A stretch of 64,000 nucleotides of DNA from a virus: the IMG/VR virus record IMGVR_UViG_3300032282_001105, positions 1 to 64,000 of that record; one strand, given 5' to 3'. Position 1 is the stretch's first letter. Every line of letters begins with the position of its first letter. Positions 10,960 to 64,000 of this stretch are shown here, one piece after another. A program made the translations under genes and the position numbers. The notes below the pieces were generated by a model. The model saw nothing but the letters and a program-made list of their open reading frames with translations. It was not told the origin of the DNA and did not search any database.

Positions 10960-10981
10960 TAAGTAAGGATAACAACATATT

Positions 10982-40669: not shown

Positions 40670-40677
40670 GATAAATA
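40670..40677 (+). promoter_or_regulatory. Late promoter GATAAATA before the fibre gene
   Basis: GATAAATA right after the stop of the 40049 gene and 32 bases before the ATG at 40702; CGGAG lies between as ribosome-binding site. Confidence 0.6.
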
Positions 40678-40701
40678 AAAGAGACCCCGGAGTAATTAAA
40701 C

Positions 40702-45461: not shown

Positions 45462-46401
45462 TATTATTGATGTAGCAGATTTAGATTGCATTTATCTAAG
45501 CTACGATGAACCACAAAAAGAAGAATTCTGGCTTAAGATTAAACATATGGTGCCTTGGGCTAAACGTGTTGACAATGTTAAAGGTAGTGATGCCGCACAC
45601 AAAGCCGCAGGTGAAGCTAGTGATACTGAACGCTTCATTCTAATCGATGGCGATAATATGCCAGATGAATCATTCTTTAATATTCAACTTGATTTTACAG
45701 ATAAAGATGAGACATTCCGTAAAGCACAGTTTCGTTGGAAAGCAATTAACTCTATCAATGGATTACGCTATGGCAATGGTGGAATGAGTTCTTGGACAAA
45801 AACATATGTACGTGAAATGCAAACACACGAACATCAAACTGATGGTGATGAATCACGTATTGCTGATTTTTGCTTAGATAGCAAAGATAATTTGTATTGG
45901 GCAATGTATAACTGTTATTCAACAACGTATCCCAATCATACACCATTTCAAGCTTGGCGTGCAGGTTTCCGCGAAGGTGTGAAGATGAGTTTGAATCGCG
46001 GTCTACGTCCATCAGTAGATGAATTTAAAGAAACAGTAGCTACACGCAATCTAAACAATCTTACTGTTTGGCACAACATTGGGGCTGATGTTGAGAATGG
46101 TATGTGGGCTATATATGGTGCAAGACTTGGAACATATATGACTATGCTTACTGAATGGGATGTACATAATGTTCAATGGTTTGATAACTATATCACATTG
46201 TGGGAAGAACACGAACATAGAGATCCTGCAATTGAAGCCGAATTATTAGGCACAGCACTAAGCGATAAATTAGGTTTGCCTATGTGTATTCATAGCCCTG
46301 AACAAAGCAAATTCTTTAAGCGTCATTACAAGGCTGATTTTAAAAATAAAGATCCTCTTGTAACTGAAATGGATGTGATTCGTAGTATTGAGGGCTGGTG
46401 A
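45448..46401 (+). CDS. Glycosyltransferase-like protein 3 with DGD motif
   Basis: 317 residues. LDCIYLSYDEPQKEEFWLKI, VPWAKRVDNVKGSDAAHKAA and ERFILIDGDNMPD form the start of a GT-A-like fold with a DxD site at 67-69; the central part (FRKAQFRWKAINSINGLRYG, GGMSSW) is characteristic of a family often found in phage genomes next to fibre genes. Donor and acceptor unknown. Its stop overlaps the next ATG (TGATG). Confidence 0.6.
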   Translation: MNSDDIIDVADLDCIYLSYDEPQKEEFWLKIKHMVPWAKRVDNVKGSDAAHKAAGEASDTERFILIDGDNMPDESFFNIQLDFTDKDETFRKAQFRWKAINSINGLRYGNGGMSSWTKTYVREMQTHEHQTDGDESRIADFCLDSKDNLYWAMYNCYSTTYPNHTPFQAWRAGFREGVKMSLNRGLRPSVDEFKETVATRNLNNLTVWHNIGADVENGMWAIYGARLGTYMTMLTEWDVHNVQWFDNYITLWEEHEHRDPAIEAELLGTALSDKLGLPMCIHSPEQSKFFKRHYKADFKNKDPLVTEMDVIRSIEGW

Positions 46402-47009
46402 TGGAATGGTATACTCACCACTCGGACAAATATACTGAATGGAATTTATATTTAAATTCGATAGAGAAATATTTTAATGTATGTAAAGATAACACTGTTT
46501 TAGAAATAGCACCGTTGTTTGGTACACATACTAATTTAATTAAACATCACGGTGCTAAACAAATTACATTTGTTGAAATAAATGACAATGCAGTAAATGC
46601 GGCATTACCCAACACGCATCCAGATTGTGAACTAATTATAGGTGATATATTTTCATACTTGTCAACTCCTAAAAAATTTGACGTAGTTGTGTGTTGCGGA
46701 TTACTTTATCATCTGCACTCTCCGTTATATCTATTAGAATTGATTGCAAATAACATAGCACCTAAATTTATTATGTTAGAAACTTTTCCTTATAATCACG
46801 AAAAGATGCACCACGCTTTAGTAAAAATTGAAGAAAATGAATCGTTACCTGATTGGAAAACGTGTGGTATTAAACTTGGTTTGGATCAAGAAATTTTTAT
46901 AATTGCTATGAAAAATTTAGGGTATAAGTTAATAACAAGTGATACTAATATTACTAAGCCATCAAATCCTGATGCTGATTTGTTTTTAGGAGTGTTTGAA
47001 AAAATATGA
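46401..47009 (+). CDS. Class I SAM-dependent methyltransferase
   Basis: 202 residues from the ATG at 46401, which overlaps the upstream stop as TGATG; a GTG one codon earlier is possible. Motif I is TVLEIAPLFGTHTNLI (~32-47), motif II an acidic VEIND at ~61-65, and motif IV-like DVVVCCGLLYHL. The glycine-rich loop is partly altered (APLFGTH). It probably methylates a small molecule, sugar or protein in the same modification route. Its stop overlaps the first radical SAM gene (ATGA). No DNA methyltransferase motif (DPPY/NPPY) was seen. Confidence 0.75.
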   Translation: MEWYTHHSDKYTEWNLYLNSIEKYFNVCKDNTVLEIAPLFGTHTNLIKHHGAKQITFVEINDNAVNAALPNTHPDCELIIGDIFSYLSTPKKFDVVVCCGLLYHLHSPLYLLELIANNIAPKFIMLETFPYNHEKMHHALVKIEENESLPDWKTCGIKLGLDQEIFIIAMKNLGYKLITSDTNITKPSNPDADLFLGVFEKI

Positions 47010-48571
47010 GCGGAGAATACGACCAATTTGCTAGAGATATGCGTGACCGCTTGAATGCGGTCAGTCCATCTTTGTGTCTTGCTAAATGGCAACAGGTAAG
47101 TTTGCATTTACCTAGCGGACTAACACAAAGTTGCTATCATCCACCGACACATAAAATTCCATTAGAATTATTAGAAAGTAAACCCAGTACATTACATAAT
47201 ACTCCTATTAAAATACAAGAACGTAAGGAGATGCTTGCAGGTAAACGTCCTAGTGGTTGTGCTTATTGTTGGAAAGTAGAAGATGCAAAAAGTGATGACC
47301 CAAACGGTCATTTAAGTGATAGACATTATCGTAGTAGCGAATGGTGGAATGCCCCAACATTTGAAGAAGTAACACAAAACTCATTTGACTATGACGTAAC
47401 ACCTAGATATGTAGAAGTTAATTTCAATCAGGCCTGCAACTTCAAGTGTATGTATTGTAGCCCCCATCTTTCTACTAGTTGGGAAGAAGAAATTAAAAAA
47501 CACGGTGGTTATCAATTAACCAATATGGTTCATAATAATATAGAAGCACTTGAAAAAAGTGGATTGATGCCACTTAAAGTAGCAAACAAAGACAATCCAT
47601 ATGTTGACGCTTTCTGGAAATGGTTCCCTGAAATCTATCGCAAACTACGTGTGTTTAGAATGACAGGTGGTGAACCACTTATGGACAAGAACACATTCAA
47701 AGTGTTAGATTACGTGAATGAAAATCCTCACGGTCAGCTTGAGTTATCCATCACAAGCAATATGTGCCCGCCCGATCAGAAGTTATTTGATAAGTTTGTT
47801 GAAAAAGTCAAAGCTATTGAAACATTACGCACATACGAAGATAAAGAAAACTTTAATGAATTCAGCGGCAATCATTGGTATGTAGATAAAGGATTCAAAC
47901 ACTTTTGGTTGTTTGTATCACTTGACGGATTTGGTGAACAAGCTGAATATATGCGTACTGGTTTAGAGTTTGACCGAATGTTAAACAATGTACGTACTTT
48001 CTTACGTGAGACAAAATATTCTACTGTGAGCTTTATCAACACATTTAACATAATGTCTATACCAAGCTTACATAAATTTTTAGCTATGGTCTTAGAATTA
48101 CGTGCAGAGTTTGGTGGAAGAAGTCAAGTTGAGTTTGAGATTGCACCCGATCAAACTGATACTGAAAAAGAAAATAACATTGTTCACAAAGTTTACAAAC
48201 AAAAGAAGTTTCAACGTGTATTTTTTGACATTCCAATCTTACGATATCCGCCGTGGTTCAGTATACAGAACAGTGGACAATATGGCATTGATGAAGTAGA
48301 ACGTTGTTTAAAATATATGGAAGACAATGTACAAGATGATGACTATTTGGAAACATTCGAGGGTTTTAAACCATATGAGATATTGAAAATTAAGCGAGAC
48401 CTTGCTATAATGAAAGAATCTCTACCCCAAGAACAATTGTTACTAAATAAGAAGAACTTCTATATGTTTATTACTGAATATGATAGACGTAGACAAACGA
48501 ATTTTATGGAAACATTCCCCGAATTAAAAGGATATTGGAGAGAATGTATCAAAGCACATACCAAACATTAA
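47006..48571 (+). CDS. Radical SAM enzyme 1 of 10, N-terminal twitch-like domain (type A)
   Basis: 521 residues. N-terminal cysteine domain: C24 (CLAKW), C43 (CYHPP) and C85/C88 (CAYC), probably binding an auxiliary Fe-S cluster as in the N-terminal twitch radical SAM family. Core motif CNFKCMYC at 144-151 binds the SAM-cleaving cluster; TGGEPLM binds the SAM amino group. The rest of the barrel and a ~150-residue helical tail follow; ends with a YDRRRQTNFMETFPE segment that recurs in other members as 'R..NF...FPE'. It starts inside the methyltransferase stop (ATGA). It is the longest of the ten. Substrate unknown. Confidence 0.85.
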   Translation: MSGEYDQFARDMRDRLNAVSPSLCLAKWQQVSLHLPSGLTQSCYHPPTHKIPLELLESKPSTLHNTPIKIQERKEMLAGKRPSGCAYCWKVEDAKSDDPNGHLSDRHYRSSEWWNAPTFEEVTQNSFDYDVTPRYVEVNFNQACNFKCMYCSPHLSTSWEEEIKKHGGYQLTNMVHNNIEALEKSGLMPLKVANKDNPYVDAFWKWFPEIYRKLRVFRMTGGEPLMDKNTFKVLDYVNENPHGQLELSITSNMCPPDQKLFDKFVEKVKAIETLRTYEDKENFNEFSGNHWYVDKGFKHFWLFVSLDGFGEQAEYMRTGLEFDRMLNNVRTFLRETKYSTVSFINTFNIMSIPSLHKFLAMVLELRAEFGGRSQVEFEIAPDQTDTEKENNIVHKVYKQKKFQRVFFDIPILRYPPWFSIQNSGQYGIDEVERCLKYMEDNVQDDDYLETFEGFKPYEILKIKRDLAIMKESLPQEQLLLNKKNFYMFITEYDRRRQTNFMETFPELKGYWRECIKAHTKH

Positions 48572-48572
48572 A

Positions 48573-50027
48573 ATGTCATCAAAAAAATATAACGAATCTT
48601 TTTCAGAATACAAAGCAAGATTAATTGACCCAGTAAGTGAAAGCTTTTGTGCCGCTAAATGGCTCAATGCTACTATCTGGTTGGGTAATGGTCAAACAAC
48701 AAGTTGTCATCATCCACCTGGCCATCAGATTAATGCAGCCGAATTAGCAACTAATCCTACAGCAATTCACAATACACAACATAAAAAACTTATGCGTGAG
48801 ATGATGCAAATTGGCAAGAGACCAAAAGAATGTGAATACTGTTGGAAAATTGAAGATATGGAACGCGGTGCAATGAGCGACCGTGTTTATAAAACTGCGG
48901 TATTTGATGAAGCTGATATTAACAAAGCGGCACATAGTGATTGGCAAGATAACACAATGTTAAAAACATTGGAGATCAGTTTTGACCGTACGTGCAATTT
49001 TGCTTGTAGTTATTGTAATCCAAGTTTTAGTACAACGTGGGTAAAAGATATTAACAAGTTTGGTCCCTACAAAAACCTCGAGGGTGATGCAAGAGACCAT
49101 TTTAATAATGCCGCCGAGTCTGCTAAGCCTATACCAGATGAACAGAATCCATATACACAGGCTTTTTGGAAGTGGTGGGAAATGCCAAATGGTTTAGCTG
49201 ATAACCTAGAAGAAATACGTATTACAGGTGGTGAGCCATTAATGGCACCAGGCGTATGGAAATTATTCGAATGGTTCAGAGACAATCAACAACGTGTAAT
49301 GAATAGACCTGATGGTAAAGTTATGCGTTTTGCTATCAATACTAACTTAGTACCTAGCGATGAGATTATGGATAGACTTATACAACTAAGTCACTATGTG
49401 CCCCATTTAGAAATCTATACTAGCTGTGAGAGTTTTGGCCAACACGCACAATATATTCGTGACGGATTTGATTGGAACAAATGGATTCACAATTTACAAA
49501 GACTTCATAAAGAAAGTAATGTGAAAAAGACACATATGATGATGACTGTTAACAGTCTATGTCTTGCTAGTATTGTGCCTTTTATGGATCAAATGATTAC
49601 ATTTAAACAATTATATGATTCAATGTTCCCTATAATGACACTTAACATTTTACGATTTCCTAGTTTTCAGAGTTGTGTAGTGTTACCGGATCACATTAGA
49701 GAAAAATATAGAAATGAATTACAAATTTGGTTGAACAATCAGATACAAATGAATCTTCATAATAGTAAAGGTGAGCCTTTATTATTACAAATGGAACGTG
49801 AACACGTGCAAAGATTGATTGATTATTTGGATGTAGTGAAAACACCACATAGATATATGTCAGATATTGAAGTAACACGTAGAGATTTTAAACAATTCTA
49901 TCATCAATATGATATTCGTAGAGGTAAGAATTTTAGAGCAACTTTCCCTCCTGAGTTTGTGCAATTTTATGATAGTATAGATGCACAATTGTCCCCACCA
50001 GAACAAATACTATCCGGTATTAATTAA
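48573..50027 (+). CDS. Radical SAM enzyme 2 of 10, twitch-like N-terminus (type A)
   Basis: 484 residues. N-terminal cysteines C26, C45 (in SCHHPP), C87 and C90 (CEYCWKIED). Core CNFACSYC at 141-148 and TGGEPLM are intact. Very like the next protein through most of its length (shared stretches such as KTLEISFDRTCNFACSYCNP and LNILRFPSFQSC), so the two are probably tandem duplicates. C-terminal motif DIRRGKNFRATFPPEF. Starts one base after the previous stop. By family, it should perform SAM-dependent radical chemistry on a peptide, sugar or other small substrate. Confidence 0.85.
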   Translation: MSSKKYNESFSEYKARLIDPVSESFCAAKWLNATIWLGNGQTTSCHHPPGHQINAAELATNPTAIHNTQHKKLMREMMQIGKRPKECEYCWKIEDMERGAMSDRVYKTAVFDEADINKAAHSDWQDNTMLKTLEISFDRTCNFACSYCNPSFSTTWVKDINKFGPYKNLEGDARDHFNNAAESAKPIPDEQNPYTQAFWKWWEMPNGLADNLEEIRITGGEPLMAPGVWKLFEWFRDNQQRVMNRPDGKVMRFAINTNLVPSDEIMDRLIQLSHYVPHLEIYTSCESFGQHAQYIRDGFDWNKWIHNLQRLHKESNVKKTHMMMTVNSLCLASIVPFMDQMITFKQLYDSMFPIMTLNILRFPSFQSCVVLPDHIREKYRNELQIWLNNQIQMNLHNSKGEPLLLQMEREHVQRLIDYLDVVKTPHRYMSDIEVTRRDFKQFYHQYDIRRGKNFRATFPPEFVQFYDSIDAQLSPPEQILSGIN

Positions 50028-50039
50028 CAAGAGAAAATT

Positions 50040-51560
50040 ATGGCAAGAGATTATAGCAAAAAAGAAACATACAAAGAGTTTAAGATTAGAGTCATCGATG
50101 ATGTATCTAAAACATATTGTGGGGCTAAATGGTATAATGCTACCATATGGTTGGGACATGGGCAAACTACAAGTTGCCATCACCCACCGGCACACAAAAT
50201 TGATATTAAAGAGATTGAAACAAATCCTTCTGCTATTCATAATACCCCTCATAAAAAATTAATGCGTAAGTTAATGCAAGAGGGGGAACGCCCTAATGAG
50301 TGTGAATACTGCTGGAAAGTAGAAGATATGAACCGAGACGCAGTTTCGGATCGTGTATTTAAAACTCATATCTATTCTGATGAAGATATCTATGCTAGTG
50401 CCAAGATGCCGTGGAATGCTGATGTTGAATTAAAAACTTTAGAAATCAGTTTTGACCGTACGTGTAATTTTGCTTGCTCATACTGTAACCCTGCATTCAG
50501 TACTAGTTGGGTACGTGATATTAAAAAACACGGTTCTTACAAAAATATCTTGTCTGATGGCCGTGGTCACTTTATTGATACAGCACCTTGGGCGGCTAGT
50601 GCAGGTGAATCAGATGATGACAATCCATACATTCAAGCATTCTGGAAGTGGTGGAATAGTTCATTACAAGATAACTTAGAAGAAATTCGTATTACAGGTG
50701 GTGAGCCATTAATGGCTCCTTCTGTTTGGAAGCTGTTTGAATGGTTTAAAGATAATCCAGAGAAGGCTAAAAAATTACGATTTGCAGTTAATAGTAATTT
50801 AGTTCCTAAGAAAGAAATTTTAGATAAACTAATTGAGATGAGTCATTTTGTACCACACTTAGAGATTTATACGAGTGGTGAAGCAAAAGGCCCACATAGC
50901 GAATACATACGTGATGGTATGGAATATAAACAATGGTGGGAAAATCTACATAGATTACATACTGAGGGTAATATTCATTCTACACATATGATGATGACTA
51001 TCAATAGTTTGTGTCTTGCTAGTATTACTGAATTTATGGATGACGTATTAGAATTCAAACGTACACATAACACACGTAGTCCAACTATGAGTTTAAATAT
51101 TTTACGTTTCCCTAGTTTCCAAAGTTGTGCTATCTTACCAGATAGTATGAAACAGCATTATAAAGAAAAATTGCAAGCTTGGTATGATGAACAGTTAGCA
51201 AAAGATGAACGTGTTAACATTGGTTGGATGGCTCCTATTCTTACAGAGGGTGAAAAGAATCAAATTGAACGTTTGATTGAATATCTTGATGTAGTTAAAA
51301 CACCTCATCGTAATACAGCAGAACAACCTAAGTTATATAATGACTTCAGGGCATTCTATGAACAGTATGATGAACGTAGAGGTAAAAACTTTAGAGCTAC
51401 ATTCCCTCAAGATTATGTTGATTTCATTAATAGTTGTGAAATTATTGGCGGTGATAGTATTCGAGGCGAAGATCCTGCAACAACAGAAGCTGGTTATGTG
51501 AGTGATGAAGTAGCACACGGTTGGGATGTTGATAACGACAGTTTGGGAAAAAATGTTTAA
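50040..51560 (+). CDS. Radical SAM enzyme 3 of 10, twitch-like N-terminus (type A)
   Basis: 506 residues. Cysteines C27, C46 (SCHHPP), C88 and C91 (CEYCWKVED); core CNFACSYC at 142-149; TGGEPLM intact. Close paralogue of enzyme 2, with an extra acidic ~35-residue C-terminal tail (GEDPATTEAGYVSDEVAHGW). Both keep all catalytic cysteines, so the duplicate is not decaying. It has AAGAGAA before its ATG and ends in a TAATG overlap with enzyme 4. Confidence 0.85.
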   Translation: MARDYSKKETYKEFKIRVIDDVSKTYCGAKWYNATIWLGHGQTTSCHHPPAHKIDIKEIETNPSAIHNTPHKKLMRKLMQEGERPNECEYCWKVEDMNRDAVSDRVFKTHIYSDEDIYASAKMPWNADVELKTLEISFDRTCNFACSYCNPAFSTSWVRDIKKHGSYKNILSDGRGHFIDTAPWAASAGESDDDNPYIQAFWKWWNSSLQDNLEEIRITGGEPLMAPSVWKLFEWFKDNPEKAKKLRFAVNSNLVPKKEILDKLIEMSHFVPHLEIYTSGEAKGPHSEYIRDGMEYKQWWENLHRLHTEGNIHSTHMMMTINSLCLASITEFMDDVLEFKRTHNTRSPTMSLNILRFPSFQSCAILPDSMKQHYKEKLQAWYDEQLAKDERVNIGWMAPILTEGEKNQIERLIEYLDVVKTPHRNTAEQPKLYNDFRAFYEQYDERRGKNFRATFPQDYVDFINSCEIIGGDSIRGEDPATTEAGYVSDEVAHGWDVDNDSLGKNV

Positions 51561-52774
51561 TGGATAGTACTACATATTGTCCTATGCCATGGATGCATTT
51601 GCACGTTTCTGTAACAGGAGGTGTGCAACCTTGCTGTATTGGGAAACAAATAGGAGATATACAAAAAAATAGTTTAGAAGATATTTGGAATAATGATGAG
51701 ATGAAAGATATTCGTCTAAAGATGTTAAACAATGAAAAACCTAAACAATGTTCTGAATGCTATAATCGTGAAGATTTAGGCTCTGCGTCACTTAGAATAA
51801 CCTCAATACATAACTACGCAAATTTAGTTGACCCTATCAATGACACACAAGCTGATGGATCATTAACAGAAATGAAATTACGTTATGTTGATTTTAGATT
51901 CAATAATCTTTGTAATTTTAAATGTAGAATTTGTAACCCAGTGTACAGTTCAAACATAGGCTCAGAAATAGTAAACTTTCACAAAATAGATTTAATAAAC
52001 GTTGTCAATAAGAATGGTCCAATCCTATATGAGGAAATGAAAAAGCAATATGATAATGTTAAAAAGATATATTTTGCAGGTGGCGAACCTATTATGCAAC
52101 GGGAACATTTTCAAGTACTAAAAGATTTAATTGAAAGCGATAGAGCAAAAGACATTGAATTGATTTATAGCACTAATGGGAGTAGATTTAAAAATGGTTT
52201 GGGCAATATGTTTGAATATTGGTCTCATTTTAAAAAAGTAGAAATAGTATTCTCATTAGATGGATATGGTTCTGCCGCAGAATATTGGCGTTCGGGCACA
52301 AATTGGGAAGAAGTAGAAGAAAATATAAAACATACAAAAAACTATCCTAATATTGTAGTAAAAGTCAATAGCGTAATAGGTTGGCCTAATATTTTTAATT
52401 GGATTAATTTTATAAAATATGCGTTAGAGACAGAGTTAATTGACGATCTTTTAAGTGCAATTGAAGTTATCCCTATTAATGATCCATATTGTTATGCACT
52501 AAGCGGTGTTCCTGAATTTAAGAAAAAAGAAATTATCAATGAATTAGAAAAATTTAAATATTACGTATGGGCATTTGCTTCACGTGTAAAATATACAAAA
52601 CCCGCAGATTTATTAATGTGCATAGATGTTTTAATTAAAAGTGTAAACATTTCTGATACGCCATTTATAAAAAAACATTTCATAGTAAAAAATACAAAAC
52701 TAGATACTTGGAGGGGTGAAGATTTCTTTACCGCATTTCCAGAACACGAAGATATGAGACCTTATATAACATGA
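51560..52774 (+). CDS. Radical SAM enzyme 4 of 10, twitch-like N-terminus (type B)
   Basis: 404 residues. Type B cysteine domain: C7 (CPMPWMHLHV), paired C25-C26 (GVQPCCIG), C64 and C67 (CSEC). Core CNFKCRIC at 118-125; AGGEPIM. In type B the CC pair stands where type A has C-(H/Y)-H. The 'C-PW-H-...-G-x-x-PCC' start is a typical N-terminal twitch signature. It overlaps the upstream gene by one base and the downstream gene by four. Confidence 0.85.
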   Translation: MDSTTYCPMPWMHLHVSVTGGVQPCCIGKQIGDIQKNSLEDIWNNDEMKDIRLKMLNNEKPKQCSECYNREDLGSASLRITSIHNYANLVDPINDTQADGSLTEMKLRYVDFRFNNLCNFKCRICNPVYSSNIGSEIVNFHKIDLINVVNKNGPILYEEMKKQYDNVKKIYFAGGEPIMQREHFQVLKDLIESDRAKDIELIYSTNGSRFKNGLGNMFEYWSHFKKVEIVFSLDGYGSAAEYWRSGTNWEEVEENIKHTKNYPNIVVKVNSVIGWPNIFNWINFIKYALETELIDDLLSAIEVIPINDPYCYALSGVPEFKKKEIINELEKFKYYVWAFASRVKYTKPADLLMCIDVLIKSVNISDTPFIKKHFIVKNTKLDTWRGEDFFTAFPEHEDMRPYIT

Positions 52775-54153
52775 ATAAAATAGTACCTATATGGGAACAC
52801 GGACGAATTAGTCCAGATAGTCCTAATAAAGTTTTCTGTATGGCTCCTTGGACACATACTTACATATCACCTCAATCTGAACGTAGAATGTGTTGTGCTT
52901 CACGTGAGGAACATAGCTTTCAAAAGCAATATATTGATAGTAGCAATGATTCAAAGTATGGAGCTGTTACTGAGAGTAAAACAGCATTAGATGATTATAA
53001 TCCAGTTTCATTAAAAGAACATTGGAATAGTGATTATATGAAAAATATACGCCGCAAATTAATGGCTGGTGAAGAAATACCACAATGTGATGTATGTAAC
53101 AAAGACTTGTTAAGTCAAAGTTCATATCGTCAGTGGTTTACTGGTAATTTGTTTATGGATAAGATACAAGAGGCATTCGATAAAACAGATGATACTGGAC
53201 ATACAACTATGGAAGCAATCAGTTTTGATTATCGTTTCAGTAATCTATGTAATTTTAAATGTCGTATGTGCGGTGAACAATTAAGTTCTACTTGGGAAAC
53301 TGAGAAAAAGATTAACAATCTTTGGAGCCCAAAGAATCAATCATTTATGATTCCAGAAATTAAATCTGCTATGCAAACATTCCAAGATGAAGTCGTAGAG
53401 CCTGAATTCCGTGATGCGATTAGTCGTGGTATAGTAGAAGAATGCTATTGGGTAGGCGGTGAACCGTTAATGTACGATGTTCATTGGTGGGCATTAGAAG
53501 AAATGCTAAAGAACGGGTCAGCAAAAGATTGTTATATGCGTTATAATAGCAATTTAAGTCGTGTACAGTTCGGTCAAAAAAATCTATACGACTATCTACC
53601 TCACTTTAAAGATTGGTTAATGTGTGCAAGTATTGATGGCACGGGTAAGATAGGTGAATATATTCGTACAGGTTTAAAATGGGATCAATGGTTAGAAAAT
53701 TTTAAACAGGGACTTGAGTTACCGGGCGGTCATGATAAAATGATGATTGACTTGACCATCACAGGTCCGGGTATGTTCAGTCTTAAAGATTTGTTTGACT
53801 TAAGTCAGGAACTTGATGTACGTATTGAAACTAAGATTATGTTTGCCTTTCACGCAGATATAATGTTTACTGCAATGGCTTGGCCAAGACATATATTAAA
53901 TAATATAATTGATGATTTGCTAGCGTATATGGAGCCAAAAGCAACACGTAAACAAGAAACATTAATTAACACACTAAAGTCTATGAAAACTAGACAAAAT
54001 CACGAAGAAGCGTTTCCAGAAACATATAAAACGGCTGCATTGAATGGTAAAAATTGGCTAAAAAGATTGGAGATCATTCGCAAAGATACATATACTATTG
54101 AAGATATATATTCTGAAAATAAAGAACTAATAACATGGTGGAACAACATATGA
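52771..54153 (+). CDS. Radical SAM enzyme 5 of 10, twitch-like N-terminus (type B)
   Basis: 460 residues. Cysteines C23 (CMAPWTHTY), C41-C42 (RMCCASRE), C106 and C109 (CDVC), with a longer ~60-residue spacer than the other type B members. Core CNFKCRMC at 160-167; VGGEPLM. Position after the third core cysteine is Gly-Glu instead of the common Asn-Pro or Ser-Pro. Starts in an ATGA overlap with enzyme 4. Confidence 0.85.
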   Translation: MNKIVPIWEHGRISPDSPNKVFCMAPWTHTYISPQSERRMCCASREEHSFQKQYIDSSNDSKYGAVTESKTALDDYNPVSLKEHWNSDYMKNIRRKLMAGEEIPQCDVCNKDLLSQSSYRQWFTGNLFMDKIQEAFDKTDDTGHTTMEAISFDYRFSNLCNFKCRMCGEQLSSTWETEKKINNLWSPKNQSFMIPEIKSAMQTFQDEVVEPEFRDAISRGIVEECYWVGGEPLMYDVHWWALEEMLKNGSAKDCYMRYNSNLSRVQFGQKNLYDYLPHFKDWLMCASIDGTGKIGEYIRTGLKWDQWLENFKQGLELPGGHDKMMIDLTITGPGMFSLKDLFDLSQELDVRIETKIMFAFHADIMFTAMAWPRHILNNIIDDLLAYMEPKATRKQETLINTLKSMKTRQNHEEAFPETYKTAALNGKNWLKRLEIIRKDTYTIEDIYSENKELITWWNNI

Positions 54154-55412
54154 ACGAAACTAAAAAGGTATTTCCTATTAATACCGCAACTGCTTGTCAA
54201 TACAAATGGACTTGGAGTACAATCTATCTATCGCAGGGACAAACTAATAGTTGTCACCGAGTTGGTGGCGGGCATTTAGACGCTTGGAACTTTAAGAACT
54301 TTCATAACTTGCCCGAAAAAATACGTGATAGAAAATTGATGTTAGAGGGTAAATGGCCTGATAATGAATGTAACTATTGTAAACGTATTGAAGACGCGGG
54401 TGGACTAAGTGAACGTAACGGATACATTAATACGTTGGATATGGTTCCACCTGAATTGGATACTGATCCGACAGCAGTTGAAGTTACTCCTCGTATTTTA
54501 GAGATTTACTTTAGTAACTTGTGTAATCAGTCTTGTGTCTACTGTTCACCTATGTTCAGTTCTGTAATTGAGAATGAGTTACGTAAACACGGCCCGTTAA
54601 GCAAACGTTATTTCTTAGATGGTACTTGGGAACAAAATCCTTTATATGAACAGTGGAAGCGTGAGTTCTGGGAATGGATGCACGAAAACTCAACACACTT
54701 ATATGATTTCCAAGTACTTGGTGGTGAGCCAATGTTCCAACCAGAGTTTCAAGAGTGTTTAGACTTTTTTGAAGAAACAGAAAATCCTAACTTGAATTGG
54801 AAAATGTTTAGTAATTTAAAACACGACCATGAACAGTTTAAAGTAAAAATCAACAAGATGGCTTCATTAATTCAACGTAAGAAAATGAAACGTATTGAAA
54901 TTGTTGCTAGTATTGATTGCTGGGGAGATGAACAAGAATACGCTAGAAATGGTATGAGTTTAGCTAATTGGGAAAAGAACTTTAACTACTTGTTAGAAGT
55001 ACCTGAAATTAGTATATTCATTCAATCTACTATCTCTCCTATTACTGCACCTACTGCATATCAATTAGTAGATAAAGTAATTGAGTGGAATAAGAAAAAA
55101 CAAATTCATCAAGGTTGGAATGTTGTCGCTAACCCTCCATTCTTAGATCCAAGTGTGTTTGGTCATTACTTGACAGACTATATGGACAAGTTAGCAGAAT
55201 CAGCACAGTCATTGAAACGTCCGCATTTCCCTGACATTAGTTATTTGGATGGATTCGTAACTCAAATTAAGAGTGCACCGGTTAACCTTGAAATGATGCG
55301 TGAGTTAAGAGATTACTTAGATGGTCTTGATGCACGTAGAAATCAAAATTGGCGTAGTATCTATCCTTGGATGGATGAGATTATGACTAAAGAATTGGGA
55401 CCTAAAGAATGA
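54150..55412 (+). CDS. Radical SAM enzyme 6 of 10, twitch-like N-terminus (type A, divergent)
   Basis: 420 residues from the ATG at 54150, chosen because it forms the ATGA overlap seen across this operon; an ATG five codons earlier is possible. Cysteines C16 (CQYKW), C35 (SCHRVGGGH), C74 and C77 (CNYC). The histidine after C35 is kept but the usual HPP is lost. Core CNQSCVYC at 125-132; LGGEPMF. C-terminal GLDARRNQNWRSIYPW matches the shared end motif. Confidence 0.85.
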   Translation: MNETKKVFPINTATACQYKWTWSTIYLSQGQTNSCHRVGGGHLDAWNFKNFHNLPEKIRDRKLMLEGKWPDNECNYCKRIEDAGGLSERNGYINTLDMVPPELDTDPTAVEVTPRILEIYFSNLCNQSCVYCSPMFSSVIENELRKHGPLSKRYFLDGTWEQNPLYEQWKREFWEWMHENSTHLYDFQVLGGEPMFQPEFQECLDFFEETENPNLNWKMFSNLKHDHEQFKVKINKMASLIQRKKMKRIEIVASIDCWGDEQEYARNGMSLANWEKNFNYLLEVPEISIFIQSTISPITAPTAYQLVDKVIEWNKKKQIHQGWNVVANPPFLDPSVFGHYLTDYMDKLAESAQSLKRPHFPDISYLDGFVTQIKSAPVNLEMMRELRDYLDGLDARRNQNWRSIYPWMDEIMTKELGPKE

Positions 55413-56599
55413 GTACATACTGCTCACTTCCTTGGATACACTTAGCAACGCACCCTCACGGGGGTGCGACTCTTTGCTGTGTAAGTGACCATAGAAATGC
55501 GGCAAGTAGTGCAAGAAATTTTGAACCATTACGTTACTTAGATGTAAATTCATCTACGATTGACAACATAATGAATAGTGATTACTTTAAGCAAACCAGA
55601 TTGGAAATGCTGAATAATCAAGTTCCGCACGCCTGCCAACGTTGTTTTACTGAAGAATCAAATGGTGTACGCAGTAAGCGAGTAGAAGAAAATGAAAGAC
55701 TAGGTTTTACTGAAGATATGGCACGTGCTATTACACGAAGTGATGGTACTATTCCTGTTAATTTTAAATTTGTTGAGTTACGTTTGGGTAACCTGTGTAA
55801 TCTTAAATGTAGAACCTGTAACCCAATGAGTAGTACTAATTGGATTCAGCCATATCAAAAACTACAAGAAGAATTAAAGTTTGTTACTCACTATGATAGA
55901 AAGATTAACAGTTCTTGGACAGAGAGTGATGAATTCTGGGATGACTTATTTCAACATAGCGAAGATTTACAGTTAATATATGTTAACGGTGGTGAACCTA
56001 CATTGGTTGAAAAGCATTGGAAATATTTAGAAGAACTTATTAAACGTGGGTTAAACAAGCAAATTACCTTATGGTATAATATCAATATGACTAACTTGCC
56101 TGACGATCTTATTGAATTGTGGAAACAATTTAAAAAAGTTCAGGTTACTTGTAGTATAGATGATTTGGGTGAACGCAATGATTATATTCGTGCAGGATCT
56201 GAATGGGATACTATAATTAATAACTTAGATAAGATACAGTCTTATCCTTGGATTGAAGCTAGCGTATGTCAAACAGTAAGTTGGATGAATGTTTATTATA
56301 TCAATGATTTTATAAAATATATGCGTTCACGCAACCTGCACGTACATTTAAATTATGTATACGATCCGGAGTTTTTATCACTTAAAGCATTGCCTGTACA
56401 TTTGAAACAAATTGTATTAGATAGATGTACTGATTTAAACGAGTGGGAATTGAACAGCTTGCGTAGTCAATTTATTGACCAACCTGATATGACAGTATTT
56501 CGTCAAGGTGTTGAATATAACAATTGGTTAGACAATAACAATCGCACTTCATTTGCTAAAGTGTTTCCAGAATGGTATGAAATACTTAAAGGCGTTTAA
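55409..56599 (+). CDS. Radical SAM enzyme 7 of 10, twitch-like N-terminus (type B)
   Basis: 396 residues. Cysteines C5 (CSLPWIHLAT), C23-C24 (TLCCVSDH), C76 and C79 (CQRC). Core CNLKCRTC at 130-137; NGGEPTL. The opening 'HPHGG' segment and PW motif are the clearest N-terminal twitch signature in the set. Ends in NRTSFAKVFPEW, like the other members. ATGA overlap with enzyme 6 upstream; enzyme 8 begins directly after its stop. Confidence 0.85.
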   Translation: MSTYCSLPWIHLATHPHGGATLCCVSDHRNAASSARNFEPLRYLDVNSSTIDNIMNSDYFKQTRLEMLNNQVPHACQRCFTEESNGVRSKRVEENERLGFTEDMARAITRSDGTIPVNFKFVELRLGNLCNLKCRTCNPMSSTNWIQPYQKLQEELKFVTHYDRKINSSWTESDEFWDDLFQHSEDLQLIYVNGGEPTLVEKHWKYLEELIKRGLNKQITLWYNINMTNLPDDLIELWKQFKKVQVTCSIDDLGERNDYIRAGSEWDTIINNLDKIQSYPWIEASVCQTVSWMNVYYINDFIKYMRSRNLHVHLNYVYDPEFLSLKALPVHLKQIVLDRCTDLNEWELNSLRSQFIDQPDMTVFRQGVEYNNWLDNNNRTSFAKVFPEWYEILKGV

Positions 56600-57763
56600 A
56601 TGGATTTAACTAGATTTAAAGAGTGCCCTGCAATAAAAAATTCAGTATATGTAGATAATCAAAGCAAGGTAGCACCTTGCTGTTATTTTAAATCTAAACT
56701 ACCAATTGAAGTGTTAAGTGATTGGAACAACTACCAAACTGAGCTTGCAAAAATTGATATAGAGACAGGTTGTGAGCATTGCATTAAATTAGAAAATTCC
56801 GGAGTAGAAGAATCACATCGCAATCGTTTTGTGCATAGATATAAAAGTGTTCTTAAGAAAGATGAGCTAGAAATATCTATCAGTGTAGATAATGTATGCA
56901 ATCTTAAATGCACTACTTGCAATCCTATTAATAGTTCTTTATGGCTGGGTGACGCTATAAAATTAAACAGTTTAAACCCTAATTATAATTTAGATCAATT
57001 TTTATCAGGGTTTAAAGATGGGAACTTTAAGTTAGATATTTGTAAAAAGATAATTGAGTCATACGAAAAAGATATTACGGTTATTCTATATGGTGGAGAA
57101 CCCACAATCAATAACGCCGTCATTGACTTTTTAGAGTGGTTGACAGAATTACCTAATGCACATTTAATATCAATAACGTTTATAACAAATGGCACTACTG
57201 TTCCTAAAAATATTGAAAATTATATTAATAAATTTAAAATGATTGATATAAATTTAAGTCTTGATTCAATAAACGAAAGAAGCGATTTTTTGCGTTTCCG
57301 TAGTCAATGGAAAGAACTTGAACAGAACGCAATAGTTTATGATTTATTAGCTTTAAAGTATAAAAATTTTGAATATAGGATACATCTTACTTTATCATTG
57401 TTAAACGTTTATTATTTTTATGAATTTTGTAATTGGGTAAATAATACTTTAAACAACGTTGAAGTTATATTTACAAAGTTAATTGGACCTAGACACCTGT
57501 CTTTAGATTTATTGAATCCAAAACAAAAACAAATAGTGATAAATCATAATTTAAACTTACTTAATAAAATTGAATCTAAGGGTTTACAAAATATCAACCA
57601 GACAATTAAAAATTATGAACAAATGGTAGAAACTTACATAGCTGATGTATATAAAGATGGATTAACACCAACTTTAGATTTTTTAACTAACTTAGATGAT
57701 ATCCGATCTACTGCTTATAAAGTAACATTTCCTGAGATAGTAGAAATTTTAAATAATGAATAA
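56600..57763 (+). CDS. Radical SAM enzyme 8 of 10, twitch-like N-terminus (type B, shortest)
   Basis: 387 residues. Cysteines C9 (CPAIKNSVYV), C27-C28 (APCCYF), C58 and C61 (CEHC). Core CNLKCTTC at 100-107; YGGEPTI. It lacks the PW of other type B members and its DNA is more AT-rich to the eye, with many Asn/Ile/Lys codons, so it may have a separate history. Overlaps enzyme 9 by eight bases. Confidence 0.85.
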   Translation: MDLTRFKECPAIKNSVYVDNQSKVAPCCYFKSKLPIEVLSDWNNYQTELAKIDIETGCEHCIKLENSGVEESHRNRFVHRYKSVLKKDELEISISVDNVCNLKCTTCNPINSSLWLGDAIKLNSLNPNYNLDQFLSGFKDGNFKLDICKKIIESYEKDITVILYGGEPTINNAVIDFLEWLTELPNAHLISITFITNGTTVPKNIENYINKFKMIDINLSLDSINERSDFLRFRSQWKELEQNAIVYDLLALKYKNFEYRIHLTLSLLNVYYFYEFCNWVNNTLNNVEVIFTKLIGPRHLSLDLLNPKQKQIVINHNLNLLNKIESKGLQNINQTIKNYEQMVETYIADVYKDGLTPTLDFLTNLDDIRSTAYKVTFPEIVEILNNE

Positions 57764-58994
57764 GAAACTGTTACAAGACCTTAGAAATCAAACAAGTCAA
57801 ACATTATGTTTGGCTAAATTCCACGAATCTACTATATGGTTATACGAAAGTAAGATTGCAAGTTGCCATCATACACCTTTTCTGTTAACAGGCAATGATA
57901 CATTAACATTTTATAATCCTGAAGGTAGACGACAGCAACAGTATTCTATGCTTAAGGGTAATAAACCAGATGAATGCAACTATTGCTGGAAACTTGAAGC
58001 ACAAGATGTTGTTAGTGATAGAGAAAAGAAATCCCTAGCATTTAACTCATCATTAACAGCAGAACAATATTTAGATAAGACATATCCATTTAAACCCAAA
58101 GCACTTGAGCTTGCATTCCAGAACACGTGTAATTTAGCTTGTAGTTACTGTAGCCCTAGTTTTAGTACTGAATGGGAGAATGATATACGCTTGAAGGGCA
58201 ACTATGAGAATATCACTACTGATAAAAAGATGCATTACCAGCGCGGTATTGATAATCGCACTCCGGTAGATATGACATTGTTTTGGGAGTGGTTCAATGA
58301 TATTGCTCCTGAGTTAGAAAGTATACGTATCACAGGTGGCGAGCCACTATTACACGAAGATACATTTGCTACATTTGCTAAAATGATTGAGGTTAATCCT
58401 AATGTAGAATGTGTTGTGCATACAAATATGTGTCAGAAGCCATTGGTGGTACAACGTTTTATTGATGGTATCTCTAAGTTAAACAACGTAAGACTCAACA
58501 TAAGTAATGAAAGTGCAGGAGAGGTCGCAGAGTTTATACGTGATGGTATGGTATATAGTGATTGGCTTAGAAACGTAACTGAAGTAGCTAAAACAAAAGC
58601 TACTATGAGTATAAGCACTACAATAACACCTATATCATTACTAGCACTAGACCAATTATATTTGGATATTATTGATATACGCAAACAAACAGGTAAGAAA
58701 GTAGATATCTCAATTAACTTTGCTACATACCCTGAGTTTCAAAGCTTGGCTGCTTTGTCAAGTGAAGAACGTGCTTTCTATTTAAACAAGTATACTAAGT
58801 TTTTTGAATCTATTGATTCATTGTTATTAGATAGTGAACGACATTCTGTTCCTAGATTTTTAACAATGTTAGATCCTAAATTAACACATACAGACAACTT
58901 AGCATATAGAAAAGACTCTGACAGTTTTTTTAAACAATATGTAATTAGAAGAAACAAGTCAATCAATTTTGCAGAACAGATTGGAACAAGATGA
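57756..58994 (+). CDS. Radical SAM enzyme 9 of 10, twitch-like N-terminus (type A)
   Basis: 412 residues. Cysteines C18 (CLAKF), C37 (SCHHTP), C74 and C77 (CNYCWKLE). Core CNLACSYC at 125-132; TGGEPLL. Resembles enzymes 1-3 but with a shorter middle; ends in a VIRRNKSINFAEQ version of the shared end motif. ATGA overlap with enzyme 10. Confidence 0.85.
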   Translation: MNKKLLQDLRNQTSQTLCLAKFHESTIWLYESKIASCHHTPFLLTGNDTLTFYNPEGRRQQQYSMLKGNKPDECNYCWKLEAQDVVSDREKKSLAFNSSLTAEQYLDKTYPFKPKALELAFQNTCNLACSYCSPSFSTEWENDIRLKGNYENITTDKKMHYQRGIDNRTPVDMTLFWEWFNDIAPELESIRITGGEPLLHEDTFATFAKMIEVNPNVECVVHTNMCQKPLVVQRFIDGISKLNNVRLNISNESAGEVAEFIRDGMVYSDWLRNVTEVAKTKATMSISTTITPISLLALDQLYLDIIDIRKQTGKKVDISINFATYPEFQSLAALSSEERAFYLNKYTKFFESIDSLLLDSERHSVPRFLTMLDPKLTHTDNLAYRKDSDSFFKQYVIRRNKSINFAEQIGTR

Positions 58995-60166
58995 AAGACG
59001 CACCAAAGAATTTATGTAGTCTATTATGGACAGGGTTTAGCAATGAACCTGATGGTCGTGTTCAACCTTGTTGTCTATATAAAGGATACATTGAAGAAGA
59101 TGGAAAGCCAATGTATGTACAAACACATTCAGTAGATGAAATATTTCATAGTAAATATATGAAAAACTTGCGTACACAGTTTAGAAATAATGAGCGTCCT
59201 GCAGGATGTAGCACGTGTTGGACTGACGAAGATAACAACTATGACAGTAAACGTGTAATATATAACACCAAGATACATCATAATTTTGGTATTAATTGGA
59301 CAATTGAGCCAGTTGAAATAACAGAGTTTCAACTTATCATTAGCAATAGTTGTAATTTAAAGTGTCGCAGTTGCACACCAAGCCATAGTAGTCAATGGCA
59401 ACAAGAAATGAAAATGTTAACTGGGTCTACTGGTTACGAAATGCCACACGGACAGTCAGCAGAAGAAGCCGGTAAATTATGGTTAGATAGACATCGTTGG
59501 TACAAGAATCTAAAACGTTTAGAAGTTGTAGGTGGAGAACCATTCTATGTTAAACAATGGCATACTATGTTCAATGAGTTAATTGATTTGGGTTATAGTA
59601 AAAACATTGATATTACATTAACAACTAATTGTACACTATTCTTTCCTGAGTTGATAACTAGAATAGCTGAAAATTTTAAATCAGTTTCGATTGGTTTGAG
59701 TATAGATGGCATAGGATCAACGTATGAATATATGAGACATTTGGGTAAATGGCCAATCGTGTATGATAATATGAAAAAATATCACGAATTGACTGATAGA
59801 ATTAATATTCAGTTAAACCTGACTATTAGTTGGCTGAATGTATTAGAAGTACCGGAGTTACACGAATTGATTAGTAATGAATTCCCTAAATTTAAAATAT
59901 GGAACAATCTTGTACATTATCCTCAGCATCTTTGTGTATGGGCAATACCTGAAGAATTAAAGAAAGCAGTATCGGATAAGTGGGATAAATATCAATGGAA
60001 AAACGAGTATAAAGATACTATGCAAGGTGTATTAAATTATATGAATAGCAAATCAACTACAAATGAAGAATTCAAAAAGAATTTAAAAATAATTTATAAG
60101 ACCGATGAATTTAGAAAAGAAAACATCACACAATCTATACCAGCACTACAGGAATTTTTAAAGTGA
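58991..60166 (+). CDS. Radical SAM enzyme 10 of 10, twitch-like N-terminus (type B)
   Basis: 391 residues. Cysteines C9 (CSLLWTGFSN), C27-C28 (VQPCCLYKG), C73 and C76 (CSTC). Core CNLKCRSC at 121-128; VGGEPFY. EPDGRVQPCC is a textbook N-terminal twitch signature. It starts at an ATGA overlap and its stop contains the GTG start of the following hydrolase (GTGA), linking the radical SAM series to the SGNH and carbamoyl genes. Confidence 0.85.
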   Translation: MKDAPKNLCSLLWTGFSNEPDGRVQPCCLYKGYIEEDGKPMYVQTHSVDEIFHSKYMKNLRTQFRNNERPAGCSTCWTDEDNNYDSKRVIYNTKIHHNFGINWTIEPVEITEFQLIISNSCNLKCRSCTPSHSSQWQQEMKMLTGSTGYEMPHGQSAEEAGKLWLDRHRWYKNLKRLEVVGGEPFYVKQWHTMFNELIDLGYSKNIDITLTTNCTLFFPELITRIAENFKSVSIGLSIDGIGSTYEYMRHLGKWPIVYDNMKKYHELTDRINIQLNLTISWLNVLEVPELHELISNEFPKFKIWNNLVHYPQHLCVWAIPEELKKAVSDKWDKYQWKNEYKDTMQGVLNYMNSKSTTNEEFKKNLKIIYKTDEFRKENITQSIPALQEFLK

Positions 60167-60885
60167 AGAATATTTTAGTTTTAGGAGATAGTTTTTCATA
60201 TGGTCAGGGTTGTTCAGACAGACCCACAACACGTGACGCAATAAGGGAAATAACACCTAGTGAATATTGCTGGCCATCTTTATTACGTAATGAATTGGAT
60301 CCAAAAGAATACAGAGTAATTAATTTGAGTAAAACCGGAAACTCATTACCGGGTATATTTTTAGATTTAATTCACTATGATGCCCATCATTCAAGTACAG
60401 ACCCTGTAAACTTAATTATATTTTCAGTCACTTCATTTGATAGACTATTAGTGGCAGACTCTGTAAAGCCGGATCTTACTACTAATTGGGTATTGAGTCA
60501 GGAATTTGAACTGAATGTTATATCAAAAGAATATGAAAACGCTAAACTTAGTTTTTTAAAATATTTATGGAATGATTCGTTATTATCTTTAAATGCAATA
60601 GTATACATTCACGCATTTTTTAGTTATGCAAAACTAAAAAATATTAAATGTTTATGGAGTACACCTGATAAACCAAATTTATATGGACAGGATAATTGGG
60701 TAGACTTTGTAAATGATTACTTTTTCGAACACCTATATAATTATGATTTTTCAGGAGAATACAATGATGCGTTTAATAAAACGTGTATTGTAGAAGATGG
60801 TCACCCTAATAATTTAGGACATCAATTGTACTATGAAAAAATAGTAAGACCTAAGATAATAAATTATATAAAGGAAAATCTATGA
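60163..60885 (+). CDS. SGNH/GDSL-type hydrolase or acyltransferase-like protein 1
   Basis: 240 residues from a GTG start that overlaps the upstream stop (GTGA). The nucleophile motif is LGDSFSYGQG with Ser10; block II is NLSKTGNSLPG; the C-terminal EDGHPNNLGH supplies His214. The acidic partner is one position off the usual DxxHP (Glu211-x-x-His214), so the triad may use glutamate. SGNH proteins remove or add O-acyl groups on sugars and similar. No signal peptide, so it acts in the cytoplasm. Next gene begins in an ATGA overlap. Confidence 0.75.
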   Translation: MKNILVLGDSFSYGQGCSDRPTTRDAIREITPSEYCWPSLLRNELDPKEYRVINLSKTGNSLPGIFLDLIHYDAHHSSTDPVNLIIFSVTSFDRLLVADSVKPDLTTNWVLSQEFELNVISKEYENAKLSFLKYLWNDSLLSLNAIVYIHAFFSYAKLKNIKCLWSTPDKPNLYGQDNWVDFVNDYFFEHLYNYDFSGEYNDAFNKTCIVEDGHPNNLGHQLYYEKIVRPKIINYIKENL

Positions 60886-60986
60886 TTAATTGGATAAAAA
60901 ATTTATACTACAAAATAAAAATGGAAATTCGTTATCGCAAACGATTAAAAGAAATGAAAAAACGAGATCCATTCATATACAAATGA
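60882..60986 (+). CDS. 34-residue basic peptide linking the two SGNH genes
   Basis: ATG at 60882 overlaps the upstream stop as ATGA; its own stop at 60984-60986 overlaps the next in-frame ATG at 60983 as ATGA. The peptide begins MINWIKNLYYKIKM and ends KKRDPFIYK; 12 of 34 residues are Lys or Arg. The first ~13 residues are amphipathic. The two exact stop-start overlaps argue strongly for translation. It might bind membrane, nucleic acid or the neighbouring enzymes, or be a substrate; nothing in the sequence decides. Confidence 0.6.
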   Translation: MINWIKNLYYKIKMEIRYRKRLKEMKKRDPFIYK

Positions 60987-63970: not shown

Positions 63971-64000
63971 ATGCTAAGAGATGTATTTTATTTCGGAGAA
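63971..64000 (+). CDS. Unidentified protein, N-terminal fragment cut by the right window edge
   Basis: ATG at 63971 opens ten codons (MLRDVFYFGE) to the edge. The VFYFG beginning resembles the first strand of Rossmann or GT-like proteins often found in phage fibre/modification regions, but ten residues are not enough to assign it. Same strand as the cluster, so probably a continuation of it. Confidence 0.45.
   Translation, partial: MLRDVFYFGE

What the first reader, a model, noticed from the sequence alone, without database searches (positions are those of the whole stretch)
47006..60166. Ten consecutive, apparently intact radical SAM enzymes in a phage
Seen: ten adjacent genes, each with a complete CxxxCxxC core, an intact GGEP motif, and four or five extra cysteines in an N-terminal domain, joined by ATGA/TAATG overlaps or gaps of 0-12 bases. 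Known: N-terminal twitch radical SAM proteins occur in phages, but their reactions are largely unknown. Inferred: ten conserved copies with no decay point to ten different steps or targets, i.e. a multistep pathway. This is the best candidate for an undescribed system in the window.
Basis: partly seen in the sequence, partly recalled or inferred. Interest (0 to 1): 0.93.

Follow-up and report, generated by a model that had tools for sequence, protein, structure and literature searches.

The report
Phage array of ten tailoring enzymes
A large aquatic virus of bacteria carries ten different, well-kept copies of one iron-sulfur "radical" enzyme type in a single gene string beside its tail and sugar-adding genes, probably to chemically decorate a surface sugar chain; similar strings of 3 to 21 copies occur in many uncultured phages, and what they make is unknown.

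Summary
Ten adjacent ORFs (47006-60166) each exceed the NCBIfam cut-off for N-terminal-twitch radical SAM proteins (NF033640). All keep CxxxCxxC, GGEP and an N-terminal C-x18-C...CxxC set that aligns with BtrN's four-cysteine twitch domain. They are not assembly duplicates: most pairs share no more than 29% identity (R2/R3 58%). Each has its nearest relative in other, separately assembled phage contigs, and eight have close orthologues with few amino-acid changes.

Ten is not exceptional: 28 of 28 large related contigs carry 3-21 members, and a run of seven lies in a Bdellovibrionota chromosome. The array belongs to a longer co-directional module: giant virion-region protein, tail-fibre-like genes, two GT8-like glycosyltransferases, a GT-A-fold protein and a methyltransferase upstream; esterase-like genes and a carbamoyltransferase downstream. 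Past the window come an NDP-sugar epimerase and a C-methyltransferase. R1, R2/R3 and R5 are conserved in order (69 of 70 loci with all three); the rest swap between close relatives.

Best reading (about 0.5): a host-recognition-region glycan module in which the enzymes oxidise, epimerise or otherwise tailor different sugars. Protein modification is the main rival. Multiple radical SAM genes in such phages were reported in 2017 and 2020; a function was not.

The parts
22731..39884 (+). giant 5,717-aa virion-region protein downstream of the gp6-like baseplate wedge gene; anchors the module in the tail region
   Evidence: ORF; homologues keep this position in L090, L091, L093, L094; gp6-like neighbour at 19333-22704
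40049..42258 (+). two virion/tail-region proteins (40049-40669, phrog_11259; 40702-42258, weak virion structural hits)
   Evidence: 97.6% and 71% identical in L094, same order
42268..43218 (+). 316-aa protein of unknown function, conserved before the glycosyltransferases (50 of 161 loci)
43568..44371 (+). GT8/glycogenin-like glycosyltransferase a
   Evidence: profile of the family matches glycogenin structures, E 4e-5; 103 of 161 related loci
44368..45141 (+). GT8/glycogenin-like glycosyltransferase b
   Evidence: same family as the previous; 104 of 161 loci
45129..45461 (+). small 110-aa conserved protein of unknown function
   Evidence: 43 loci in its cluster
45448..46401 (+). GT-A-fold protein, most constant neighbour of the arrays; probable glycosyltransferase
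   Evidence: 120 of 161 loci; AlphaFold2 pLDDT 89; PDB fold matches dominated by GT-A transferases, E 1e-4 but TM only about 0.3
46398..47009 (+). class I SAM methyltransferase
   Evidence: Pfam Methyltransf_25 E 1.6e-6
47006..48571 (+). R1, N-terminal-twitch radical SAM (subfamily A, conserved core)
   Evidence: NF033640 286.8 bits; relative in L094 93.9% identical, dN/dS 0.045
48573..50027 (+). R2 (subfamily A, core; sister group of R3)
   Evidence: 295.8 bits; L090 76.6% identical, dN/dS 0.077
50040..51560 (+). R3 (subfamily A, core)
   Evidence: 306.0 bits; L009 86.6% identical
51560..52774 (+). R4 (subfamily B); no close orthologue in the loci fetched
   Evidence: 356.0 bits; SPASM Pfam hit at residues 7-68; best relative 40%
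52771..54153 (+). R5 (subfamily B, core)
   Evidence: 316.1 bits; L009 85%
54135..55412 (+). R6 (subfamily A); alternative start at 54150
   Evidence: 229.9 bits; L009/L170 78%
55409..56599 (+). R7 (subfamily B)
   Evidence: 356.6 bits; AlphaFold2 pLDDT 92.3; L009 77%
56600..57763 (+). R8 (subfamily B), weakest family score; no close orthologue in the loci fetched
   Evidence: 190.8 bits; best relative 35%
57756..58994 (+). R9 (subfamily A)
   Evidence: 232.6 bits; L009 78%
58991..60166 (+). R10 (subfamily B)
   Evidence: 306.1 bits; L009 69%
60163..60885 (+). SGNH/GDSL-like esterase (GDSFSYG), by eye; relatives follow arrays in L090 and L012
   Evidence: sequence; no Pfam hit
60890..61819 (+). 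second SGNH-like protein (GCSFTFG), by eye
   Evidence: sequence; relatives in L012, L011, L164; no Pfam hit
61816..63312 (+). NodU/CmcH-type O-carbamoyltransferase
   Evidence: Pfam Carbam_trans_C 1.8e-47 and _N 2.4e-32; 54 of 161 loci
63312..63938 (+). possible 2-oxoglutarate/Fe(II) oxygenase-like protein, by eye only
   Evidence: sequence; no Pfam hit
63971..64000 (+). start of a 1,567-aa repeat protein with a GT-A-like C-terminus that runs past the window (contig 63971-68674); then NDP-sugar epimerase, C-methyltransferase and a GT-like gene (by eye)
   Evidence: on L089 (contig 60001-72305)

Best explanation
It is the tailoring section of a glycan-synthesis module that lies beside the tail-fibre genes of a large T4-related phage (a host-recognition-type variable island). 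Inferred mechanism: the GT8-like and GT-A proteins and the sugar-nucleotide enzymes build a short glycan on the infected cell's surface or on the phage's own tail protein. Each N-terminal-twitch radical SAM enzyme uses its core [4Fe-4S] cluster and SAM to make a 5'-deoxyadenosyl radical, removes one hydrogen from a particular sugar (or sugar nucleotide), and passes the leftover electron to the four-cysteine auxiliary cluster, as BtrN is thought to do. The result would be an oxidised, epimerised or deoxygenated sugar that methyl, carbamoyl and acyl-modifying enzymes then finish. R1, R2/R3 and R5 would do the common steps and the exchangeable copies would give phage-specific decoration, for superinfection exclusion, receptor masking or host range. 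Shown: family membership, intact motifs, the twitch match, the conserved module, sugar enzymes alongside, sequence constraint on eight copies, and exchange of the others. Inferred: cluster binding, catalysis, that the substrate is a sugar, and the biological role.
For: Family and motifs. The N-terminal 70 residues align with the C-terminal twitch of BtrN, a cyclitol dehydrogenase, including all four cysteines (four-Cys auxiliary cluster and two-electron oxidation from PMC9012708). Constant neighbours are glycosyltransferases: GT8-like in 103-104 and the GT-A protein in 120 of 161 loci. Others are carbamoyltransferase in 54 loci, NDP-sugar epimerase and sugar-type C-methyltransferase and, in relatives, UDP-glucose dehydrogenase, NeuB, aminotransferase, SAM synthetase and 2OG oxygenases. 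Phosphomannomutase, galactosyltransferase and APS kinase appear among sampled neighbours, whereas control stretches of the same contigs show mainly capsid, DNA and RNA genes. Position beside fibre genes is kept; published pelagimyophage host recognition clusters hold tail fibres, GT8 enzymes and radical SAM cassettes (PMC7029224). Core conserved, remainder exchanged.
Against: No substrate is shown. Fold search of R7 puts peptide-modifying enzymes (anSME, CteB, SkfB) above sugar or nucleotide enzymes, although only the shared barrel aligns. In a Bdellovibrionota-type chromosome a run of seven sits between mfd and ATP-synthase genes with no glycosyltransferase beside it, so the enzymes need not depend on a glycan locus. 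Bacterial neighbours are mixed, including amino-acid-type enzymes. The GT-A call rests on weak fold matches. Esterase and oxygenase calls downstream are by eye.
Confidence: 0.5

Rival explanations
1. Protein maturation: the enzymes modify residues of a virion protein (the giant 5,717-aa protein, the fibre proteins, or the 1,567-aa W-H-P-D repeat protein), as SPASM enzymes do in sulfatases and ribosomal peptides, toughening or altering the fibre.
For: Closest folds are peptide-acting enzymes anSME, CteB, SkfB, EpeE and sequence profiles hit SkfB and CteB. The array is next to fibre genes. The repeat protein offers many equal sites and recurs in 48 loci.
Against: No precursor-like small gene lies between the copies (gaps of 12 bases or less). 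Sugar enzymes recur nearby, and profiles also match BtrN, BlsE and viperin. The barrel fold does not separate peptide from sugar enzymes.
Confidence: 0.22
2. Small-molecule pathway: the array makes or alters a low-molecular-weight metabolite (natural-product-like) useful during infection; phage glycan genes are bystanders in the same island.
For: Bacterial copies neighbour aminotransferase V, proline racemase, PALP, WelO5-type and Asp/Asn hydroxylases and carbamoyltransferases, as in natural-product clusters; twitch relatives include BtrN and MoaA.
Against: No carrier-protein, ligase or export genes were identified beside the window's array; the tight link with glycosyltransferases across more than 100 loci is left unexplained.
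Confidence: 0.13
3. A gene-family expansion largely kept by drift and recombination, with few active enzymes and no ten distinct roles.
For: R2/R3 overlap in sequence (58%); the copy number varies from 3 to 21; 22 of 659 relatives lack GGEP.
Against: All ten in the window keep all motifs; eight of ten have orthologues with little amino-acid change against heavy synonymous change; deep branches rather than recent copies.
Confidence: 0.08
4. DNA base hypermodification: radical SAM, carbamoyl- and glycosyl-transferases build a modified base against host restriction.
For: From general knowledge, some phage base-modification clusters use radical SAM enzymes and carbamoyltransferases; a 2OG-like gene is nearby (by eye).
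Against: The module sits among tail genes and is highly variable in copy set; no base-modification enzyme was recognised among the neighbours scanned, though this was not searched for specifically.
Confidence: 0.05

Closest known systems
NCBIfam NF033640, twitch domain-containing radical SAM protein (N_Twi_rSAM)
   Same: All ten are full-length members over the curated cut-off.
   Different: The model names no reaction; what stands out here is the number side by side and the conserved module around them.
Host recognition cluster of pelagimyophages and cyanomyophages (PMC7029224)
   Same: Variable island among structural genes with tail fibres, GT8 glycosyltransferases and radical SAM cassettes.
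   Different: The window's gp6 is nearest to RaK2-like jumbo phages among cultured phages (about 33%). R3, the GT-A protein and GT8 b have no match in the cultured-phage collection, which includes HTVC008M. Radical SAM genes here dominate the island.
T4-like environmental genome TARA_ERS488813_N000010 (PMC5332604)
   Same: 183 kb T4-like marine phage with 12 radical SAM genes and Fe-S genes.
   Different: The paper reads the genes as Fe-S metabolism and gives no cluster anatomy or subfamily in the text read; I could not align its genome.
BtrN (2-deoxy-scyllo-inosamine dehydrogenase; PDB 4M7T)
   Same: Twitch domain with four cysteines aligned to all four in the array.
   Different: In BtrN the twitch follows the radical SAM core; here it precedes it, and overall similarity is low.
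Vibrio phages K566/K567
   Same: Cultured-phage-collection records with up to five related genes, several close together.
   Different: About 22-25% identity; not in the same glycosyltransferase module.

Membership tests
N_Twi_rSAM (NF033640) | score above the curated 170-bit cut-off over the full model | tested here: met
   ten of ten, 190.8-356.6 bits
N_Twi_rSAM (NF033640) | radical SAM core with CxxxCxxC and GGEP | tested here: met
   ten of ten
N_Twi_rSAM (NF033640) | twitch-type auxiliary cluster site N-terminal to the core | tested here: met
   C-x18-C...CxxC in all ten; profile residues 5-77 align to BtrN twitch 185-258, i-E 1.6e-5
N_Twi_rSAM (NF033640) | binds two [4Fe-4S] clusters and cleaves SAM | not testable with these tools
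   needs purified protein
BtrN-like dehydrogenases | twitch domain C-terminal to the core, acting on an amino-cyclitol alcohol | tested here: not met
   twitch is N-terminal; substrate not testable. The claim is only that it may work like BtrN.
SPASM radical SAM enzymes | C-terminal SPASM domain with two auxiliary clusters | tested here: not met
   Pfam SPASM hits fall at the N-terminus of R4, R5, R7, R10 only; no cysteine-rich C-terminus
Ribosomal peptide (RiPP) maturation system | short precursor-peptide gene next to the enzyme | tested here: inconclusive
   no free space between copies; the 110-aa gene at 45129 is conserved but was not examined for leader/core features
Host recognition cluster of T4-like marine phages | variable island with tail fibres and glycosyltransferases in the structural region | tested here: met
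Host recognition cluster of T4-like marine phages | lies between VrlC and gp14 | tested here: inconclusive
   giant protein is on the left as VrlC would be, but it was not identified as VrlC; gp14 was not identified in the contig
DNA base-hypermodification cluster | base hydroxylase or hydroxymethylase plus base-targeting transferases | not tested
   no specific search was run

The most novel reading that the evidence does not exclude
A combinatorial radical-enzyme decoration system: a fixed core (R1, R2/R3, R5) plus an exchangeable library of up to about twenty paralogous radical SAM enzymes, each specific for a different sugar position, gives each phage lineage its own unusual surface or virion glycan, driven by competition between phages for the same hosts.
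Probability: 0.3. Interest if true: 0.86.

Novelty: new variant of a known kind. Interest (0 to 1): 0.62.

Why it matters
A curated enzyme family without a known reaction is here in dense arrays, in natural sets that differ from phage to phage. If the copies tailor sugars, this is a large untapped set of radical glycan chemistry and a new way for phages to change surfaces; if they act on virion proteins, it is a new kind of phage protein maturation. Either answer would give the NF033640 family a function, and a conserved core of three genes (R1, R3, R5) makes the test small enough to do.

Tried and rejected
Assembly duplication: rejected. Recent tandem duplication inside this phage: rejected, nearest neighbour of each copy is a non-window sequence. 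Ten as an exceptional number: rejected, 3-21 per large contig. Cultured-phage counterparts of the module: searches with R3, the GT-A protein and GT8 b gave no match; R4, R5 and R7 gave only weak Vibrio or marine hits. PDB sequence-profile search for the 45448 protein and for the 380-aa neighbour family found nothing useful. Promoter and terminator scans were uninformative: promoters at or below chance, terminators only slightly above. A Pfam scan of the giant protein failed because my second piece was out of frame and was not repeated. Own-genome search showed only one further, distant radical SAM protein in the contig. Iron-sulfur carrier PF01521 is over cut-off in 15 of 28 large contigs, so Fe-S support is common but not universal.
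Full report
Observation. Ten consecutive ORFs on the + strand, 47006-60166, are all members of NCBIfam NF033640 (twitch domain-containing radical SAM protein), with scores of 190.8-356.6 bits against a cut-off of 170. I call them R1 to R10. All ten keep the CN-x2-C-x2-C core and GGEP. Before the core there are four cysteines in R1, R2, R3, R6 and R9 and five in R4, R5, R7, R8 and R10. The distance from the first cysteine to its matching second ligand is 19 residues in all ten, followed by a CxxC. Genes overlap by ATGA or TAATG or are 0-12 bases apart, with overlaps of 8 and 19 bases at two junctions.

Not an artefact. Within the set the best pairwise identities are 29% or lower except R2/R3 at 58%. 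Similar runs occur in many independent IMG/VR contigs. In a 171-sequence tree the nearest neighbour of every window copy is a non-window sequence, with support of 0.865-1.0. Subfamily A (R1, R2, R3, R6, R9) sits in one clade of 55 tips (0.988); R4, R5, R7, R8 and R10 fall outside it. For eight copies an orthologue of 69-94% identity exists. dN/dS is 0.045 for R1 and 0.077 for R2; for R3, R5, R6, R7, R9 and R10 synonymous sites are saturated and pN is 0.09-0.20. R4 and R8 have only relatives of 40% and 35%, and the dN/dS of about 0.4 there is not informative.

How common. Two viral scans returned 160 loci, both cut at the 80-locus limit, and a third, with R6, two more. From these I collected 659 distinct family members; all have CxxxCxxC and 637 have GGEP. 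Of 28 large contigs chosen from these loci all had 3-21 matches; two contigs of 342-347 kb had 21. The choice was not random: they were selected for having the family. The contig with the closest R1 (352 kb, 94% identity) has 13 matches over about 20 kb, 12 of them over the cut-off, with a few other genes between. In a bacterial collection the family occurs widely in Bdellovibrionota and Flavobacteriales bins; one run of seven lies between mfd and ATP-synthase genes and so is chromosomal. Some other 'bacterial' contigs carry the phage glycosyltransferases and are probably phage (L177, L180, L188, L194, L199, L201, L202, L205, L239).

The module. The array is part of a longer co-directional string. 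Left: giant 5,717-aa protein, two virion-region proteins, a 316-aa protein, two GT8/glycogenin-like glycosyltransferases (E 4e-5), a 110-aa protein, a GT-A-fold protein and a methyltransferase. The GT-A assignment rests on a good AlphaFold2 model (pLDDT 89) whose PDB matches are dominated by GT-A transferases, but with TM near 0.3. Right: two SGNH-like proteins (by eye), an O-carbamoyltransferase, a possible 2OG oxygenase (by eye), then, past the window, a 1,567-aa repeat protein whose C-terminus resembles the GT-A protein, an NDP-sugar epimerase, and a C-methyltransferase of the sugar-modifying type. The left-hand order is kept in L090, L091, L093 and L094, and the GT-A protein occurs in 120 of 161 loci. 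R1, R2/R3 and R5 occur together in 70 of 151 loci and in that order in 69, with a 40% identity threshold.

Neighbourhood control. Among 110 non-redundant neighbours of viral arrays the Pfam hits include other radical SAM proteins, carbamoyltransferase, SAM synthetase, phosphomannomutase, galactosyltransferase, APS kinase, 2OG and Asp/Asn hydroxylases and lectin-like domains. 110 genes from distant stretches of the same kind of contigs gave mainly capsid, replication, nuclease and other functions. Only the top 25 families are printed and the counts are small, so this is a qualitative contrast. In bacterial loci the neighbours are mixed, with radical SAM (14 of 116), glycosyltransferases, aminotransferases, hydroxylases and carbamoyltransferases; carbamoyltransferase relatives appear within the fetched stretch in about ten loci.

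Mechanism. A deeper profile of the family aligns its N-terminus with the C-terminal twitch of BtrN, matching all four cysteines (first seen). In BtrN the auxiliary cluster has four cysteine ligands and the reaction is a two-electron oxidation of a cyclitol alcohol; the cluster is thought to accept the electron (PMC9012708). So the order of domains is permuted but the cluster site is of the fully ligated type. The AlphaFold2 model of R7 is confident (92.3); its nearest solved folds are anSME, CteB and SkfB, then viperin-like enzymes, BlsE and MoaA. Only the barrel aligns, so this does not decide between peptide and sugar. Combining the twitch type with the glycosyltransferase and sugar-nucleotide context, I rate sugar or glycan tailoring most likely (0.5), virion protein modification next (0.22).

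What phage. gp46/47-like, gp6-like and lysozyme-bearing tail genes place it among T4-related myoviruses. The gp6-like protein is nearest, among cultured phages, to RaK2-like jumbo phages at about 33%. The nearest relative by R1 is a 352-kb contig, so the 72-kb record is probably a fragment of a jumbo phage (inference).

Prior knowledge. A 2017 study of marine viral genomes reported a T4-like genome with 12 radical SAM genes (PMC5332604). A 2020 study described the host recognition cluster of pelagimyophages with GT8 enzymes and radical SAM cassettes and proposed host surface modification for the glycosyltransferases (PMC7029224). A third paper noted radical SAM enrichment in Tasman Sea viruses (PMC7150976). 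I found no paper in the library that names the twitch family in phages or gives a function. The finding is therefore a new variant of a known kind: the presence of such genes is known; the subfamily, the conserved core, the exchange of copies and the numbers up to 21 are what this check adds.

Limits. The loci were fetched with queries from this array, so frequencies are conditional on that. Orthology rests on best hits and one FastTree run. No expression, cluster or activity data exist. Some annotations on the right-hand side are by eye.

Noticed in passing
window 5112-6215 (-) and 6212-6817 (-): An eleventh, distant radical SAM gene and a short-chain dehydrogenase-like gene sit next to gp46/47-like genes; relatives of this radical SAM type (24-31%) recur in 19 loci, several just after N_Twi arrays.
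   Followed up: partly
contig 63971-68674 (L089:3971-8674): 1,567-aa protein with many W-H-P-D...PPYIYxFG repeats and a GT-A-like C-terminus; relatives in 48 loci; no Pfam hit. Function unexplained.
   Followed up: partly
G003 (352-kb relative), contig 86249-87130 (L267): A gene that looks like a bacterial outer-membrane porin with a signal peptide, a few kb beyond the module; might hint at a betaproteobacterial host and surface remodelling. By eye only.
   Followed up: no
L184 (Bdellovibrionota-type bin), 8659-18441: Seven N-terminal-twitch radical SAM genes in a row in a chromosome between mfd and ATP-synthase genes, with no glycosyltransferase beside them.
   Followed up: partly
set of 659 relatives: 22 relatives have no GGEP motif at all, suggesting altered SAM binding or decayed copies elsewhere in the family.
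   Followed up: no
L122:8273-9370 and eight other loci of its cluster: Some phages carry their own S-adenosylmethionine synthetase beside the array, in keeping with high SAM demand.
   Followed up: partly
L076:12428-14584: A B12-binding radical SAM gene (719 aa; nine loci) occurs next to N_Twi arrays in relatives.
   Followed up: no
window 86-2860 (-): Tape-measure/endolysin-like protein with a lysozyme-like stretch near its C-terminus.
   Followed up: no
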